Source: Streptomyces sp. NBC_01294 (GTDB lineage Bacteria; Actinomycetota; Actinomycetes; Streptomycetales; Streptomycetaceae). Taken from it: DNA of 64,000 bases. The notes below the pieces were generated by a model that was given only the letters and a program-made list of their open reading frames with translations, did not search any database and was not told where the DNA came from. A program made the translations under genes and the position numbers. The DNA is taken from the NCBI RefSeq assembly GCF_035917235.1, contig NZ_CP108423.1:434001-498000 (forward strand). The letters run 5' to 3'. Position 1 is the first letter of the stretch. Each line of letters begins with the position of its first letter. Positions 58,216-63,359 of the stretch are shown in pieces.

Positions 58216-58934
58216 ACCGGCAGCGGCACGAGGAGCAACTGCTCGGCCCGTACGTGCTCGGCGTCCTGGACGCCGAGGAGGTCCGCCGGATCGAGGAACA
58301 CGTGAGCGGGTGCGTGCAGTGCCGGGAGGAGGTGGCCGCGTTGCGCGAGATGGAAGCGGCACTGGGCGAGGTTCCCGAGGAGGCGTTCCTCGACGGCCCG
58401 CCGCAGGGAGGTGACCTGCTGCTCCAGCGCACCCTGCGGCAGATGCGCGGTGAGCGGGCCGGTGAACAGCGTCGGCGCGCCGGGCTCGCGGGACTGGCCG
58501 TGGCTGCCTCGCTGGCGGCCGTGTTCTTCGCCGGTACGCAGCTGGGCACCGCCGATTCGGGGCCCGTCGCGCTGCCCCCGCCACCGTCCCCGACGGCTAC
58601 GGCGGACCCCTCGCTGCCGCCCAAGAACAGCAAGGTGGCCTCGGCGACGGATCCGGGCACGGGCGCGCGGATGACCGTGCGGATGACGCCGGCCGCGAAG
58701 TGGGTGCGGGTCAACGCGGCGGTCACGGGAGTGCCGCCGGGCGAGCGGTGCCGGCTGGTCGTGGTCTCCAAGGACGGCACGCGCACCACCGCCGGCGGCT
58801 GGGTCACGGGCAACCAGACCGGTGAGTCCAAGGGGGCGTCGCTGGACGGTTCGGCGGCCGTGGACCAGGCGGACGTGAAGGCGATCCTGGTCGAGAACGA
58901 GGCGGGCAGGACGTTCGTGTCCGTACCGGTCTGA
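58212..58934 (+). CDS. Zinc-binding membrane anti-sigma factor
   Basis: A 240-residue protein. The N-terminal cytoplasmic domain has the ZAS signature H-x3-C-x2-C in EEHVSGCVQCREE, which grips the sigma factor. A single membrane span follows (AGLAGLAVAASLAAVFFAGT) and then an extracytoplasmic domain (MTVRMTPAAKWVRVNAAVTG) that should sense envelope state. Overlaps the sigma gene by four bases. Confidence 0.92.
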   Translation: MNRQRHEEQLLGPYVLGVLDAEEVRRIEEHVSGCVQCREEVAALREMEAALGEVPEEAFLDGPPQGGDLLLQRTLRQMRGERAGEQRRRAGLAGLAVAASLAAVFFAGTQLGTADSGPVALPPPPSPTATADPSLPPKNSKVASATDPGTGARMTVRMTPAAKWVRVNAAVTGVPPGERCRLVVVSKDGTRTTAGGWVTGNQTGESKGASLDGSAAVDQADVKAILVENEAGRTFVSVPV

Positions 58935-58960
58935 CCTCCGAGCCCGAGCCGGAACGTGAC

Positions 58961-58993
58961 GGAGCCCGGGAGCATATCCAGCTCCCGGGCTCC
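58961..58993. terminator. Bidirectional terminator
   Basis: Perfect 13-bp stem (GGAGCCCGGGAGC and complement) with the loop ATATCCA. It ends the sigma/anti-sigma operon from the left and the RNA-bearing operon from the right. Just before it on the minus strand a second hairpin GTGTGC...GCACAC (59017-58995) occurs. Confidence 0.85.
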
Positions 58994-59035
58994 TGTGTGC
59001 CACCCAATTGCGCACACCGGCACGTTTAAGAGTCG

Positions 59036-59148
59036 CGGATCATTCTGAGATCGACGTGTTCTACCTTTGAACTACCGCGCCACGAGAAGAGGCACAGAGG
59101 GGACTTGAACCCCCATCCATCGATGATCGTCCACGCTCGGTCGATCCG
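59036..59148 (-). ncRNA. Permuted tRNA-like RNA module 2 (YrlA/Y-RNA-like)
   Basis: Read on the minus strand: outer stem CGGATC (59148-59143) pairs with GATCCG (59041-59036). Inner stem ATCGATG (59124-59118) pairs with CGTCGAT (59056-59050). T-arm is GGGGG-TTCAAGT-CCCCT (59114-59098). Acceptor 3' strand CTGTGCC (59097-59091) pairs with 5' strand GGCGCGG (59081-59075) through two G-U pairs, joined by the 9-base loop TCTTCTCGT. Bases TA follow, then D-arm GTTC-AAAGGTA-GAAC (59072-59058) with the usual GG. The halves are in the reverse order of a normal tRNA and no anticodon loop is formed. No CCA is encoded. This matches the tRNA-mimic plan of bacterial YrlA Y RNAs. Confidence 0.75.
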
Positions 59149-59176
59149 GTGTTCGGCGGCGAATACTGAGACTGGA

Positions 59177-59309
59177 GCGAGAATCTGAGATTTACGGGGC
59201 CGCCTCTACCAGCTTGGGCCACCCCGGCACGCAATGCCGGGGGAGGGATTCGAACCCCCAACTGACACCCCAGTTCAGCTTCAACATCAGTTTCAGCTTG
59301 CGCTCTCGC
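59177..59309 (-). ncRNA. Permuted tRNA-like RNA module 1 (YrlA/Y-RNA-like)
   Basis: Read on the minus strand: GCGA (59309-59306) pairs with TCGC (59180-59177). A side hairpin AGC-GCAA-GCT (59304-59295) has a GNRA loop. GAAACTGA (59294-59287) pairs with TCAGATTC (59188-59181) with one A-A mismatch. GGGGT (59271-59267) pairs with GCCCC (59200-59196) where an anticodon stem would be. Variable GTCAGTT is followed by T-arm GGGGG-TTCGAAT-CCCTC (59259-59243). Acceptor 3' strand CCCCGGC (59242-59236) pairs perfectly with 5' strand GCCGGGG (59228-59222) through the 7-base cap ATTGCGT. Bases TG follow, then D-arm with CTGGTAG in its loop (59219-59202). Permuted order, no anticodon, no CCA. Confidence 0.78.
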
Positions 59310-59312
59310 GCA

Positions 59313-59334
59313 CCCCCTGCAGACATACAGAGGG
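59313..59334 (-). other. Hairpin between the protein gene and the RNA modules
   Basis: CCCTCTG (59334-59328) can pair with CAGGGGG (59319-59313, one G-U) over an 8-base loop, 11 bases after the stop codon of the upstream gene. It may mark the mRNA end or a processing point that separates mRNA from the RNA modules. Confidence 0.45.
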
Positions 59335-59345
59335 AGATTTCGGGG

Positions 59346-60077
59346 CTACCTGAACAGGTAGCCGAACACCGCGTCGCCGACCCGCTGGTCGGTGACCTCG
59401 GCGCTGTTGGCCTCCTCGCGGGCGAACTTGACGGCCTGCTGGAGCTTCTCCACGCGGTCGAGCAGCTCGTTCACCCTGCGGGCCGGCAGCGCACCGGAGA
59501 ACTTCACGGTCGTCCAGTACCCGACCGGGACGTCCTCGTAGTAGACCTCGACCTGCGCCGGGTGCTTCTCGGTGGCCTCGGCCTTGACGTGGTTGCGCGG
59601 GACCTTCTTGGTGCGGATCGTGCGCACGGGGTCCGTCTTCCAGGAGTCCGTGGACGGGTCCAGGTTCCAGGACTCGGAGGCGTCCAGCACCGGCAGCTTC
59701 CGCACGAAGGTGTTCATGTCGGTGAGCTGCTTCTCGAGGAAGAGCAGGTAGGGCACGGGCACCTGCGCCAGCAGGACCGTCCCGTCCACGACGACGTCGG
59801 CGGCCGCACTGCGGTTCGCCCAGTCCTTGGTCGCCGTCACGTCGAACAGCCGCGTCAGGGTCCCCGCCGTCGCCCGCAGCACGTCCTCGGCCTTGACCTG
59901 CACCCGGGTGGACTCGGGCGGCAACTGCTCGCCCTCCTCGTCCTTGGGCTGGTAGGTCCGGGAGATGCCGGCCAGCAGGGCGGGCTTCTGGACGTCGTGG
60001 TGAGCCTGCGTGAGCTCCTGGAGGGACTTGGACTTGACGCCCTTTTCCACTGCGATGATCTGATTCAGCTTCGGCAC
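59346..60077 (-). CDS. Conserved actinobacterial protein of unknown function next to tRNA-like RNAs
   Basis: A 243-residue protein starting at GTG 60077, nine bases after the stop of the helical-repeat gene and about 36 bases before the first tRNA-like module. Sequence: PKLNQIIAVEKGVKSKSLQEL, KPALLAGISRTYQPKDEEGE, AEDVLRATAGTLTRLFDVTA, PYLLFLEKQLTDMNTFVRKL, RTIRTKKVPRNHVKAEAT, and an Asn/Glu/Arg-rich helical end. There is no signal peptide or membrane span. The Lys/Arg-rich TIRTKKVPRNHVK stretch could touch RNA. I believe it is catalogued as DUF7873 but cannot verify this. Position suggests it is the protein partner or processing factor of the RNAs (inference). Confidence 0.75.
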   Translation of the reverse strand: MPKLNQIIAVEKGVKSKSLQELTQAHHDVQKPALLAGISRTYQPKDEEGEQLPPESTRVQVKAEDVLRATAGTLTRLFDVTATKDWANRSAAADVVVDGTVLLAQVPVPYLLFLEKQLTDMNTFVRKLPVLDASESWNLDPSTDSWKTDPVRTIRTKKVPRNHVKAEATEKHPAQVEVYYEDVPVGYWTTVKFSGALPARRVNELLDRVEKLQQAVKFAREEANSAEVTDQRVGDAVFGYLFR

Positions 60078-60086
60078 GTGATCAAC

Positions 60087-61508
60087 CTAGCAGTCGATTG
60101 TCCGATCATTCACCGGGATTTCCGGCACCCCGGCGCGGTCGAGCAGGCGGCGCATGTCCCCGGCGGGAAGCGCCGGGTTGGCCGCTGCGGCCGCCGCCGC
60201 GTCCCGGTCGGGATCGGCGAGCAGTGCGCGGATCCGGGCCACGGGGAGCCGCGGGTCCCGGCCGGCGTCCGCGCGCGTCTCCGGGTCCCGGCTGAGCCGG
60301 TCCAGGAGCTCCGGCTCCAGACCGGGGTCGCGCAGGGCCAGGCGCCGGCCCCTCGGGTCCGGGGAGTCGCCGAGGCGCGCGGCGAGCCCGGCGGCGGGGA
60401 AGCCCGGCCGGGTGACCAGCATGCCCACGGCGCGGTGGGTGCCGTTCAGGTAGAGGTCGAGGAGCAGCTCGGGCGGCGGTTCCGGGTGGAACTCGGCGAG
60501 CAGCAGCCGTACGGCGAAGTCCTCGTCCCGCGCGAGCAGTTCGACGGCGTCGGCCGGCAGGCCGGGGCAGACCGCGGCGCTGCGCCGCAGCCAGGTGTGC
60601 GCGGACTGGGCGCACCGCCGCAGGAACGCGGCGTCCTCGCGGCGCTCCCACACCCAGTCGAGGGTGGACAGCCGGTCCTCGGCACCGACCGTGTAGTCGA
60701 TGGCGGCGCGCTGGGACTCGCTCAGTTCGGGGCGGGCGGAGACCTGGAGCCGGACCCGCGGGTCGGGGTCGACGGCCAGCCGCGCCACCAGGTCGGACGG
60801 GAGCGAGGGGTTGCCGGCGATCGCCGCGAGCCGTTCGCCCTCCGCGACCACGCGTTCGGCGAGTTCCCGGGTGAGCCGGCCCCTCGCCAGAACCTCGGAC
60901 ACCCCCGGCCATCCGTCCCCCAGTCGACCGGCCAGCCAGGTGGTCCGCTCCTCGTCCTCATGGCAGACCTGCAGGGCGGCGGCCTGCCGGACGTCCGGGT
61001 CCTCGTCGTGGAGGAGCCGCTCACGTGCCTCGTCCGCGAGCCGGTCCCAGACCCGGCAGGCCGCACTGCGGAACGCCGGGTGCCCGTGGTGCGCGAGACC
61101 CGCCAGGATGTGGGCGGGTGGAGCGCCCCACACGACCAGTTCGTGGCCCACCAGGCCGCGGGGGTGCGCCAGCAGCCGCTCGTACGCCCGGTCGGGCAGC
61201 GGGGCCACCCGCCGCCGGTAGGCCAGGGGGCCGTGCGCGAGGGTGAGGTGGACCGACGGGGCCGGGTCGTCGACCAGCCGGGCGCGCTGGCCGGGGTCGA
61301 CGCTGCCGTTCTCGGCGAGGGCCATCCGGACGTGGCGGTCCGGGTGGACCAGAACGGCCTCGATCACCTCTTGCGGCAGAACCGCGCGCTTCGCAACCGC
61401 TCGCCGCAGCCACTCGTCTTCGTGGCCGAGCAGCCGCAGCAGCACGTCCGCCGGTGCGGCCTCGTTCGATGCCAGCCCGTGCAGCAGCCCCGTCCACTGA
61501 TCGCCCAT
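60087..61508 (-). CDS. Leucine-rich-repeat-variant / HEAT-like helical repeat protein
   Basis: A 473-residue protein, ATG 61508 with GGAGGG upstream. It is a solenoid of roughly 20-25-residue helical repeats; recurring elements include VAKRAVLPQEVIEAVLVHPD, HVRMALAENGSVDP, AIAGNPSLPSDLVARLAVDP and DPRVRLQVSARPELS. No catalytic motif, signal peptide or TROVE/vWA domain is seen. Such solenoids bind proteins or RNA. It is the first gene of the operon that ends in the two tRNA-like modules. Confidence 0.75.
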   Translation of the reverse strand: MGDQWTGLLHGLASNEAAPADVLLRLLGHEDEWLRRAVAKRAVLPQEVIEAVLVHPDRHVRMALAENGSVDPGQRARLVDDPAPSVHLTLAHGPLAYRRRVAPLPDRAYERLLAHPRGLVGHELVVWGAPPAHILAGLAHHGHPAFRSAACRVWDRLADEARERLLHDEDPDVRQAAALQVCHEDEERTTWLAGRLGDGWPGVSEVLARGRLTRELAERVVAEGERLAAIAGNPSLPSDLVARLAVDPDPRVRLQVSARPELSESQRAAIDYTVGAEDRLSTLDWVWERREDAAFLRRCAQSAHTWLRRSAAVCPGLPADAVELLARDEDFAVRLLLAEFHPEPPPELLLDLYLNGTHRAVGMLVTRPGFPAAGLAARLGDSPDPRGRRLALRDPGLEPELLDRLSRDPETRADAGRDPRLPVARIRALLADPDRDAAAAAAANPALPAGDMRRLLDRAGVPEIPVNDRTIDC

Positions 61509-61599
61509 GCCCCGATCCCTCCCCCGAAGATCCAAAGCGGGCAGCGTAACAAGGAAGCCCACAGCCGGACCGATCATCACATTGCGGTCCATGACATCC

Positions 61600-61611
61600 T
61601 GTGACGTCACA
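61600..61611. promoter_or_regulatory. 12-bp palindrome in a divergent promoter region
   Basis: TGTGACGTCACA is a perfect palindrome centred between the divergent helical-repeat gene (start 61508) and ATP-grasp gene (start 61660). It could be an operator for either operon. Confidence 0.4.
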
Positions 61612-61659
61612 ACTCGCCGGACGGAATCGGCGGACGTCCGGGGAATTTGGGGAAGGTCG

Positions 61660-62565
61660 ATGAGGCTCTGCTTCCTGGTGGAGGAGCACTACCGCCACGA
61701 CGGCATGCCGAACGAGGTGATCGGGCAGCTGACCGCGTGGGGGCACCGGGTGGACGTGGTGCGGCCGGGCGGCTCGCTGCTGCGCATGACCGAGGCCGTG
61801 GACGCGGGTGCGCACGACGCCTGGGTGCTCAAAACGGTCTCCGGCGGCCCGGGGCTGACGCTCCTCGAAGCCGCCGCGGCGGCCGGGATGACCACGGTCA
61901 ACGACGCCCGGTCGATCCGGGGCGTACGGGACAAGGCACTGGCCGCCGCCATCGGGCGCGGCCGGGGACTGCCGCTGCCGCCCACGTACGCGGTGGCCTG
62001 CCCCGAACTGCTCCGGGAGATACCGGCGGCGGAGTACCCGCTCGTCGTCAAGCCCGCCGACGGCAGTTCCGGCCGGGCCGTGCACCTGGTGTCCTCGCCG
62101 GAGCGGCTGGAGTCGATGCTCCCCGAGCTCGCGGGCGAGGGCATGCTCATCGCCCAGCCGTACGTGCCCAACTCGGGCACGGACATCAAGGTGTACGGGG
62201 TCGGCGGCGAGCTCTTCGCGACCGAGCGCTGCTCCCCGCTGCACCCGGACCCCTCGGTGCGGGAGCGGCGCGTGCCGCTGTCGTCCGAGGTGGCGGCGAT
62301 CGCCGCCCAGGTGGGGGCCGTGTACGGGCTGGACCTGTACGGGGTGGACGTGCTGCTGGGCCCGGACGGTCCCGTCGTGGTCGACGTGAACGACTTCCCG
62401 AGCTTCCGTCAGGTGCCGGACGCGGCGGGGCGGGTGGCCCGCGCGGTCCTGGACCTGGCGCGGGCGGGCGGCTCGGCGCCGCCGCCGGTGATCGCGCCGC
62501 GGCCGTACGCGCTGCCGCTGTCGATTCCGGCGCAGGTTCCGGCCGCAGCGGGTGAAGCGGTATGA
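61660..62565 (+). CDS. RimK-like ATP-grasp ligase 1
   Basis: A 301-residue ATP-grasp protein, ATG 61660 with GGAAGG. The fold is visible as an N-terminal pre-grasp domain (RLCFLVEEHYRHDGMPNEVI), then LVVKPADGSSGRAVHLVSS (ATP lysine and glycine-rich loop), IAQPYVPNSGTDIKVYGVGG, and the metal-binding GVDVLLGPDGPVVVDVNDFP. Such enzymes join a carboxylate to an amine using ATP. The closest groups are RimK and inositol-phosphate-kinase-like ligases. Overlaps the next ATP-grasp gene by four bases; the two enzymes may act as a pair. Confidence 0.85.
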   Translation: MRLCFLVEEHYRHDGMPNEVIGQLTAWGHRVDVVRPGGSLLRMTEAVDAGAHDAWVLKTVSGGPGLTLLEAAAAAGMTTVNDARSIRGVRDKALAAAIGRGRGLPLPPTYAVACPELLREIPAAEYPLVVKPADGSSGRAVHLVSSPERLESMLPELAGEGMLIAQPYVPNSGTDIKVYGVGGELFATERCSPLHPDPSVRERRVPLSSEVAAIAAQVGAVYGLDLYGVDVLLGPDGPVVVDVNDFPSFRQVPDAAGRVARAVLDLARAGGSAPPPVIAPRPYALPLSIPAQVPAAAGEAV

Positions 62566-63359
62566 GGGTCGGACTGATCACCCCGGAACCCGGGCATCCG
62601 CTGCTCGCGGCCGCCACCGCGCTGCTGGCTCCGGAGCACACCGTCGAGGCGCTCGATCCGCGCACGCCCGGGGACACCACCCTGCCCCCGGCCGATGTGT
62701 ACCTGCTGAAGTCGCGGACGCCACACGCCCTGGAGCTCGCACGGTCGCTGGAAGGGCGGGGCGCGGCCGTGCTGAACTCCGCGGCGGCCACCGCGCTGTG
62801 CCAGGACCGGACGGAGATGGCGGAGCTCGCCCTGCGGGCCGGGCTGCCATTCGCGGCCACCCGCATGGTCGGCTCCCTCGCGGCGTGGGCGTCCGGGACG
62901 CGGCTGCGCGCCCCCGTGGTGGTCAAGAGCCTGCGCAGCCGCCGGGGCGATCTTGTCGCGCGCGCCGACGACGACGCCGGGCTGCGGGAGTTGGCGCGGG
63001 CCTGGCCGCGCGAGCCGGTCGTGGTGCAGGAGTACGCGGCCAACAACGGCTGGGACCACAAACTGTGGGCCGTCGGGGATCAGATCTTCGCGGCCCGGCG
63101 CCGCTCCGAACTCTCGCCCGGAGGGCGTGGCCCCGACCTGCCGCTGTCCCTGGACGAACTGCCCGCCGGATGGGCCGGCCTGGTGCACGAGGTGGGCGCG
63201 GTGTTCGCGCTGGACGTGTACGGCGTGGACATCATCGACACCGGCGGCGGGACTCCGCTGATCGTGGACGTCAATGCCTTCCCCGGCATCCGCGGCCAGT
63301 CCGGCGCCCCTGAGGCCCTCGCGGCACTGACCCTGCGCCGGGCCGCCGAGCGGGCCTGA
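62562..63359 (+). CDS. RimK-like ATP-grasp ligase 2
   Basis: A 265-residue ATP-grasp protein coupled to the previous gene (ATGA). It has VYLLKSRTPHALELARSLEG in the pre-grasp domain, APVVVKSLRSRRGDLVARAD at the ATP lysine, VVVQEYAANNGWDHKLWAVG, and the metal-binding DVYGVDIIDTGGGTPLIVDVNAFP end. It is shorter than its partner and only distantly similar, so not a recent duplication. No precursor peptide was found nearby. Confidence 0.84.
   Translation: MRVGLITPEPGHPLLAAATALLAPEHTVEALDPRTPGDTTLPPADVYLLKSRTPHALELARSLEGRGAAVLNSAAATALCQDRTEMAELALRAGLPFAATRMVGSLAAWASGTRLRAPVVVKSLRSRRGDLVARADDDAGLRELARAWPREPVVVQEYAANNGWDHKLWAVGDQIFAARRRSELSPGGRGPDLPLSLDELPAGWAGLVHEVGAVFALDVYGVDIIDTGGGTPLIVDVNAFPGIRGQSGAPEALAALTLRRAAERA

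What the first reader, a model, noticed from the sequence alone, without database searches (positions are those of the whole stretch)
59036..59309. Two circularly permuted tRNA-like RNA modules in one intergenic stretch
Seen: on the minus strand, two units each show a T-arm (TTCGAAT and TTCAAGT loops on GGGGG stems), then the 3' acceptor strand, a 7- or 9-base cap, the 5' acceptor strand, then a D-arm. All seven acceptor pairs form in both units even though the sequences differ (GCCGGGG/CCCCGGC and GGCGCGG/CTGTGCC). Where an anticodon loop should be, long stems join the RNA ends. Known: bacterial YrlA Y RNAs carry a tRNA-mimicking module with this topology and bind the Ro60 orthologue Rsr. Inferred: these are Y-RNA-like non-coding RNAs, possibly of a new subtype, because no Rsr gene is adjacent.
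Basis: partly seen in the sequence, partly recalled or inferred. Interest (0 to 1): 0.92.

Follow-up and report, generated by a model that had tools for sequence, protein, structure and literature searches.

The report
Paired tRNA-mimic RNAs beside DUF7873
Two small RNAs that fold like rearranged transfer RNAs without an anticodon sit directly after a gene of unknown function, and the same gene-plus-RNA unit recurs in many Streptomyces and in phages of quite different bacteria, which suggests an undescribed RNA-protein partnership.

Summary
Minus strand 59259-59058 carries two circularly permuted tRNA modules; both acceptor stems pair 7/7. They are the window's only descriptor hits, against 0 in 1.28 Mb of shuffled sequence. 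Acceptor, T and D stems covary between phages and Streptomyces.

In 121 Streptomyces genomes all 60 DUF7873 genes have the second RNA within 1 kb; no match of 54.9 bits or more lies elsewhere. A module follows DUF7873 in 80 of 80 best genome loci and 76 of 80 best viral loci. TROVE/Rsr presence is independent of DUF7873 (p 0.20) and not found in 9 of 10 phage records.

The RNAs resemble YrlA but score far below Rfam's cut-off and carry their own motifs. In paired phage loci the first RNA's D-arm is leucine-tRNA-like (43 of 46); 54 of 110 viral caps begin N-CCA.

Reading: an Rsr-independent tRNA-mimic RNP with DUF7873 as protein, probably a decoy or tether. Expression, binding and function are untested.

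The parts
59346..60077 (-). DUF7873 (PF25283) protein gene, 243 aa; the conserved partner of the RNAs
   Evidence: Pfam 404 bits, E 2.7e-121; present with the RNA in 60 of 60 gene copies in 121 Streptomyces genomes
59160..59310 (-). RNA 1 (approximate span): first permuted tRNA module with basal stem; ends inferred from structure only
59243..59259 (-). RNA 1 T-arm
   Evidence: covaries in A4
59222..59242 (-). RNA 1 acceptor stem closed by a 7-nt cap (3' strand 59242-59236, cap 59235-59229, 5' strand 59228-59222)
   Evidence: 7 of 7 pairs show double changes in A4
59202..59219 (-). RNA 1 D-arm with 3-bp stem; nearest own-genome tRNA D-arm is Leu(caa)
59166..59296 (-). RNA 1 basal stem: CTGAAACTG 59296-59288 with CAGTCTCAG 59174-59166, GAAGCTGA 59282-59275 with TCAGATTC 59188-59181, GGGG 59271-59268 with CCCC 59199-59196
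   Evidence: RNAalifold consensus of 52 unit-1 sequences; motif enrichment
58999..59160 (-). RNA 2 (approximate span): second permuted tRNA module with long basal stem; ends inferred from structure only
   Evidence: covariance model R1 matches 59147-59019 at 129.4 bits (the window is one of the 15 sequences that made R1)
59098..59114 (-). RNA 2 T-arm
   Evidence: covaries in A5
59075..59097 (-). RNA 2 acceptor stem closed by a 9-nt cap (3' strand 59097-59091, cap 59090-59082, 5' strand 59081-59075)
   Evidence: 7 of 7 pairs show double changes in A5
59058..59072 (-). RNA 2 D-arm; nearest own-genome tRNA D-arms are Gly; base after the acceptor is U
59138..59145 (-). RNA 2 conserved 5' basal motif AUCGACCG
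59023..59030 (-). RNA 2 conserved 3' basal motif CUUAAACG
   Evidence: 41 of 80 genome loci against 1 of 1997 background pieces; 28 of 95 viral loci against 4 of 1873
59030..59138 (-). RNA 2 nine-pair stem between the motif and the module (59138-59130 with 59039-59030)
   Evidence: 7 of 9 pairs with double changes
58961..58993 (-). 13-bp G+C-rich hairpin after RNA 2, possible terminator without a U run
   Evidence: read from sequence; the terminator scan with a T run found none

Best explanation
The locus is a two-part cassette: a DUF7873 protein and, just downstream on the same strand, one or two non-coding RNAs whose core is a circularly permuted tRNA (T-arm, 3' acceptor, cap, 5' acceptor, D-arm) with a basal stem in place of the anticodon arm. 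Shown: the structure, its covariation, and the near-obligate linkage to DUF7873 across Streptomyces, plasmids and phages, without Rsr. Inferred: the basal stems with their conserved motifs are the DUF7873 binding sites, so protein and RNA form an RNP that works like Ro60/Rsr with Y RNA but with another protein. Most likely job: the exposed tRNA elbow and acceptor of the RNP engages a tRNA-binding enzyme or a tRNA-attacking nuclease, as a decoy that cannot be cut in an anticodon loop it lacks, or as a tether, so protecting the tRNA pool of the phage or cell. The leucine-like RNA 1 and the U73-type RNA 2 would make the mimicry selective.
For: Structure beyond chance. Covariation: unit 1, 12 of 15 pairs changed on both sides, 75 such cells against 15.1 shuffled; unit 2, 15 of 16 pairs, 112 against 23.6; 0 of 500 shuffles reach either. 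Stem in the anticodon position: own pairing beats mean foreign pairing in 79 of 86 (unit 1) and 91 of 103 (unit 2); divergent loci alone p 7e-5 (n 18) and 0.0019 (n 23). Linkage: 60 of 60 DUF7873 genes, 80 of 80 best genome loci against 10 of 2884 background windows, 76 of 80 best viral loci against 20 of 1145. Other window neighbours are not kept (best 14 of 80), so the cassette travels as a unit. Rsr not needed. RNA-specific motifs differing from those of Rsr-linked Y RNAs. tRNA likeness: Leu D-arm in 43 of 46 paired phage unit 1, control 5.5 of 283 non-Leu tRNAs. In the fetched phages the cassette often lies inside tRNA arrays. The decoy idea was voiced for Salmonella YrlA in PMC7790460 (passages seen).
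Against: No transcript, binding or phenotype data. DUF7873 has no recognisable RNA-binding fold: 0 Foldseek hits at E 1e-3 or better in PDB or BFVD, so its role rests on linkage alone. Eight of 80 viral loci lack a descriptor module and four of these also lack an R1 match. The alignments hold only units that passed the descriptor, so percent paired is partly by construction. Leu likeness is weaker in Streptomyces (24.6 of 68), and the window's own unit 1 has no encoded CCA. The linkage would also fit RNAs that only regulate the DUF7873 mRNA.
Confidence: 0.6

Rival explanations
1. They are ordinary Rsr-dependent YrlA Y RNAs whose Rsr gene simply lies elsewhere in the genome; DUF7873 is an accessory to the Rsr system.
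For: Same topology as YrlA; this genome has two TROVE genes; Deinobacterium chartae has both TROVE and DUF7873; 3 of 18 IMG/VR records and 1 of 10 phage records with DUF7873 also carry TROVE.
Against: 22 of 59 Streptomyces genomes with the cassette have no TROVE match and the association is not significant; 9 of 10 phage records have none; Rsr-linked Y RNAs in the same genus have different basal sequences, and one viral record holds both kinds side by side.
Confidence: 0.12
2. The RNAs are a structured 3' untranslated region that controls the stability or translation of the DUF7873 mRNA, for example by feedback when DUF7873 binds its own message.
For: Same strand, close after the stop codon; no sigma-70-like promoter match at 58900-59400.
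Against: Two separate complete tRNA-like modules with specific tRNA features are more than a feedback hairpin needs; distance from the stop codon to the first viral module varies from 49 to 318 nt; the promoter scan covers only one promoter type.
Confidence: 0.15
3. An RNA-protein toxin-antitoxin or anti-phage module: one partner blocks translation or attacks tRNA and the other neutralises it.
For: Compact, mobile, obligate RNA-protein pair in chromosomes, plasmids and phages.
Against: No PADLOC match, and no PHROG or NCBIfam match; DUF7873 is not recognisably a nuclease; position of RNA after the gene and tRNA-like RNA differ from type III systems as I recall them.
Confidence: 0.08
4. Degenerate or permuted tRNA genes that are meant to yield working tRNAs.
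For: tRNA-like D-arm, T-arm, acceptor and often an encoded N-CCA at the cap start.
Against: No anticodon loop: the flanks pair as stems; the structure is maintained by covariation, so not decay; no ARAGORN call in the window.
Confidence: 0.03

Closest known systems
YrlA, bacterial Y RNA-like RNAs (Rfam RF02553)
   Same: Permuted tRNA module with T-arm, capped acceptor and D-arm on a basal stem; Rfam model aligns end to end to both units.
   Different: 27.9-30.5 bits against a gathering score of 69; partner gene DUF7873 instead of TROVE; tandem pair of two types; own basal motifs AUCGACCG/CUUAAACG and CUGAAACUG/UCAGAUU.
Rsr-linked Y RNAs in Streptomyces (L008, L069, L071, L072) and viral contigs (L075, L076)
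   Same: Same core topology and close to their protein gene.
   Different: Their 5' flank looks like a tRNA 3' half with anticodon-loop-like sequence and their basal strands differ; R1 matches most of them as modules only, at 22-40 bits, although L072 and one L076 match span the full model at 40.3 and 29.2 bits, against 129 bits for the window RNA that helped build R1.
Circularly permuted tRNA genes of algae and archaea (recalled, not fetched)
   Same: 3' half precedes 5' half, joined through a cap between acceptor strands.
   Different: No anticodon arm here, so no tRNA can result.

Membership tests
YrlA (RF02553) | Rfam gathering score (69 bits) | tested here: not met
   30.5 and 27.9 bits
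YrlA (RF02553) | Permuted tRNA module: T-arm, 3' acceptor, cap, 5' acceptor, D-arm | tested here: met
YrlA (RF02553) | Adjacent Rsr (TROVE) gene, usual in described cases (recalled) | tested here: not met
   TROVE genes at C1:1507875 and C1:2307450, window at C1:434001-498000
YrlA (RF02553) | Binding to Rsr | not testable with these tools
   No binding data; basal sequences differ from Rsr-linked RNAs of the genus
Functional (permuted) tRNA | Anticodon stem-loop | tested here: not met
   Flanks pair as stems; no ARAGORN gene in the window
DUF7873 (PF25283) protein family | Pfam gathering score (27 bits) | tested here: met
   404.3 bits
Known RNA-binding protein folds for DUF7873 | Structural match to a solved RNA-binding domain | tested here: inconclusive

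The most novel reading that the evidence does not exclude
DUF7873 defines a new RNP class. It carries two isotype-specific tRNA mimics, a leucine-type RNA 1 and a U73-type RNA 2. The cap between the acceptor strands is cut out by tRNA-processing enzymes (an encoded N-CCA at the cap start and U before the 5' acceptor strand fit this), leaving a nicked tRNA mimic with a free CCA end that may be charged or bound by tRNA-handling enzymes; phages and Streptomyces use it to protect or redirect the tRNA pool.
Probability: 0.2. Interest if true: 0.93.

Novelty: new variant of a known kind. Interest (0 to 1): 0.8.

Why it matters
DUF7873 is a large family without a described function: one search scored 7471 relatives among a capped 7999 candidates, and no held paper names it. 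Linking it to tRNA-mimic RNAs gives it a testable role and extends the Y-RNA idea beyond Ro60. Phages with hosts in Actinomycetota, Proteobacteria and cyanobacteria carry the cassette, often inside tRNA arrays, which makes phage control of host tRNA pools directly testable with phages already in collections.

Tried and rejected
Rfam YrlA alone is a poor guide: its 40.6-bit hit in this genome at C1:5598160 is two ordinary tandem tRNA-Asn genes. The neighbouring HEAT-repeat protein 60087-61610 as a disguised Ro60: rejected as part of the system, it is kept in only 4 of 80 loci. Promoter and T-run terminator scans of 58900-59400: none found. Solved-structure search: 0 at E 1 for the protein and four weak hits (E 0.029 to 0.28) for the alignment. 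The first alignments A2 and A3 had wrongly placed window rows and were replaced by A4 and A5. A single isotype for RNA 2 in phages: not found. VIA-align gave no convincing fold. An rRNA-style reading of motif similarity between AUCGACCG/CUUAAACG and the Ro60 site was considered from memory and left open.

Literature: listings for YrlA (26 papers, 20 listed), DUF7873 (none), Y RNA/Rsr/phage (31, 25 listed), RNA repair (19, 10 listed), permuted tRNA/tRNA mimic/phage (10, 9 listed). Passages seen: PMC7824862, PMC7790460, PMC11208441, PMC12282133. PMC4201824, PMC10870794 and 10.1093/nar/gkw722 are not held, so whether the main Y-RNA papers mention Rsr-free cases could not be checked.

Full report
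OBSERVATION. A descriptor scan (5-bp T-stem, TTCRANN loop, 7 of 7 acceptor pairs, D-arm with GG loop) gives just these two in the window and none in ten first-order shuffles, 1.28 Mb with both strands. Rfam's YrlA model aligns end to end to both, below its gathering score. ARAGORN calls no tRNA in the window.

PARTNER GENE. The RNAs follow, on the same strand, a gene whose whole length matches Pfam DUF7873 (404 bits). The locus has a second, inverted copy at the other end of the chromosome. In a draw of 121 Streptomyces genomes 59 have DUF7873. A covariance model of RNA 2 (R1, 15 sequences taken beside DUF7873, window included) was run on the same 121 genomes: all 60 DUF7873 genes (two in this genome) have a match within 1 kb, 59 of them at 54.9 bits or more and one at 41.6; no match of 54.9 bits or more lies elsewhere. 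Of the 75 best matches that I took over into, 15 lie away from DUF7873 at 42.5-50.4 bits; comparing positions, 14 of the 15 lie within about 1.5 kb of a TROVE gene, one (G065) does not. In all, 110 of 121 genomes have some match at E 0.01, most of them weak module matches (37-50 bits; list cut off); the one in this genome outside DUF7873 and TROVE loci is a tandem tRNA-Asn pair. R1 was trained on such loci, so the linkage in close Streptomyces relatives is partly expected; the absence of strong hits elsewhere is not.

WIDER LINKAGE. A scan of viral contigs with the family alignment found 429 relatives and kept the best 80: 72 of 80 have a module within 600 nt, against 20 of 1145 background windows; R1 adds four of the eight misses (L175, L183, L209, L230), leaving L190, L191, L229 and L234. 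At least 12 of these 80 are the same contigs as in the first scan of 18, in which, with a slightly looser threshold and 700 nt, all 18 had a module. tblastn finds DUF7873 in 73 phage records (Vibrio, Gordonia, Rhizobium, Klebsiella, Serratia, Arthrobacter, Pseudanabaena, Rhodococcus, Microcoleus) and 4 plasmid-collection records. I fetched 10 of the 73 and 1 of the 4: all 11 have a descriptor hit at that looser threshold, but the one in Microcoleus (64-nt cap) is doubtful, and R1 recognises the Vibrio one only at E 0.14. In several of these phages the cassette lies inside a tRNA array. Other genes near the window's DUF7873 are not kept in the 80 genome loci (at most 14 of 80; HEAT protein 4 of 80).

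NOT TIED TO RSR. Of 121 Streptomyces genomes, 37 have both TROVE and DUF7873, 22 only DUF7873, 31 only TROVE, 31 neither (Fisher p 0.20). TROVE is not found in 9 of 10 phage records (one of the nine is a partial genome) and is found in Rhizobium phage RHph_TM2_3B; it is found in 3 of 18 IMG/VR records, which may be fragments. Rsr-linked Y RNAs of the genus have other basal strands.

COVARIATION. A4 holds the window and 34 of 45 dereplicated unit-1 sequences, A5 the window and 34 of 43 unit-2 sequences, caps of 12 nt or less. Unit 1: 99.8% of cells paired, 12 of 15 pairs changed on both sides, 75 such cells against 15.1 shuffled, score 0.484 against 0.128. Unit 2: 98.0%, 15 of 16 pairs, 112 against 23.6, 0.682 against 0.201. 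No shuffle of 500 reaches these values, and slid pairings fall to 41-61% paired. The units were picked by a descriptor that demands most of these pairs, so percent paired is partly by construction; the variety of pair types is not. Stems in the anticodon position: own flanks pair better than foreign ones in 79 of 86 and 91 of 103 units; divergent loci alone p 7e-5 and 0.0019. In A6 (15 rows chosen to hold TCGAC and TTAAACG) the 9-pair stem beside the RNA 2 motif has double changes at 7 of 9 pairs.

MOTIFS. RNA 2 carries CUUAAACG in its 3' strand (41 of 80 genome loci, 28 of 95 viral loci; background 1 of 1997 and 4 of 1873) and AUCGACC in its 5' strand (68 of 80; 23 of 95; background expectation 5.3 and 5.7). 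RNA 1 shares UCAGA[UC]U (80 of 80; 36 of 95; background expectation 0.7 and 5.1). Signals in viral loci are therefore real but far from universal.

tRNA LIKENESS. In viral loci with two units, the D-arm of unit 1 is nearest to tRNA-Leu of the same loci in 43.0 of 46 (ties shared); only 5.5 of 283 non-Leu tRNAs do so, and 39.5 of 43 Leu tRNAs. The base after the acceptor of unit 1 is A in 28 of 46; of unit 2 U in 36 of 46, with no single nearest isotype. In the 68 two-unit Streptomyces loci compared with this genome's tRNAs, unit 1 is nearest Leu in 24.6 and unit 2 nearest Gly in 41.8. An encoded N-CCA opens the cap in 54 of 110 viral modules, 14 of 41 in the first set (about 1 expected) and 38 of 148 in Streptomycetaceae (3.7 expected), against 49 of 326 ordinary tRNAs of the same phage loci. 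The last cap base is U in 77 of 110 and 70 of 148. The window's own caps are AUUGCGU and UCUUCUCGU, without CCA.

MECHANISM. Shown: structure, covariation, linkage, independence of Rsr. Inferred: RNP formation, and a decoy or tether role on tRNA-handling enzymes. PMC7790460 (passages) suggests the same competitive role for Salmonella YrlA. PMC12282133 (passages) proposes Rsr and Y RNAs in a Listeria phage, and PMC7824862 (passages) notes TROVE proteins in some jumbo phages; in the passages I saw neither names DUF7873, and the search for that name found no paper.

NOVELTY. The core topology is known from YrlA; the protein partner, the pairing of two RNA types, and the phage distribution without Rsr are, as far as the held papers show, not described. 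The key Y-RNA papers were not held, so an earlier mention cannot be excluded. I rate it a new variant of a known kind.

Noticed in passing
L008 5223-5320, L072, L075, L076: Rsr-linked Y RNAs in Streptomyces and viral contigs carry, 5' of the T-arm, sequence like a tRNA 3' half including an anticodon-loop-like stretch (ctcataatcgg, ctgttaat), i.e. a fuller permuted tRNA.
   Followed up: partly
L058/L076 (IMGVR_UViG_3300026078_000021): One viral record holds both a DUF7873 cassette and a TROVE gene with three further permuted modules about 1.1-1.6 kb downstream.
   Followed up: partly
L296 (own genome C1:322600-322900) and mirror at C1:7903852: A tRNA-Ser-like element with matching acceptor strands but no clear anticodon arm, 119 nt, 31.2 bits to Rfam tRNA, not called by ARAGORN.
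   Followed up: partly
own genome C1:493179-494074 and C1:7732596-7733491: Mirror-image copies of this locus and of two tRNA-like loci suggest terminal inverted repeats of almost 0.5 Mb or more.
   Followed up: no
61507-63359: Two tandem ATP-grasp (RimK-like) genes on the plus strand next to the HEAT protein gene, possibly peptide-modifying.
   Followed up: no
L009 5156-5310: Tandem tRNA-Asn genes give a 40.6-bit YrlA hit: a source of false YrlA calls.
   Followed up: yes
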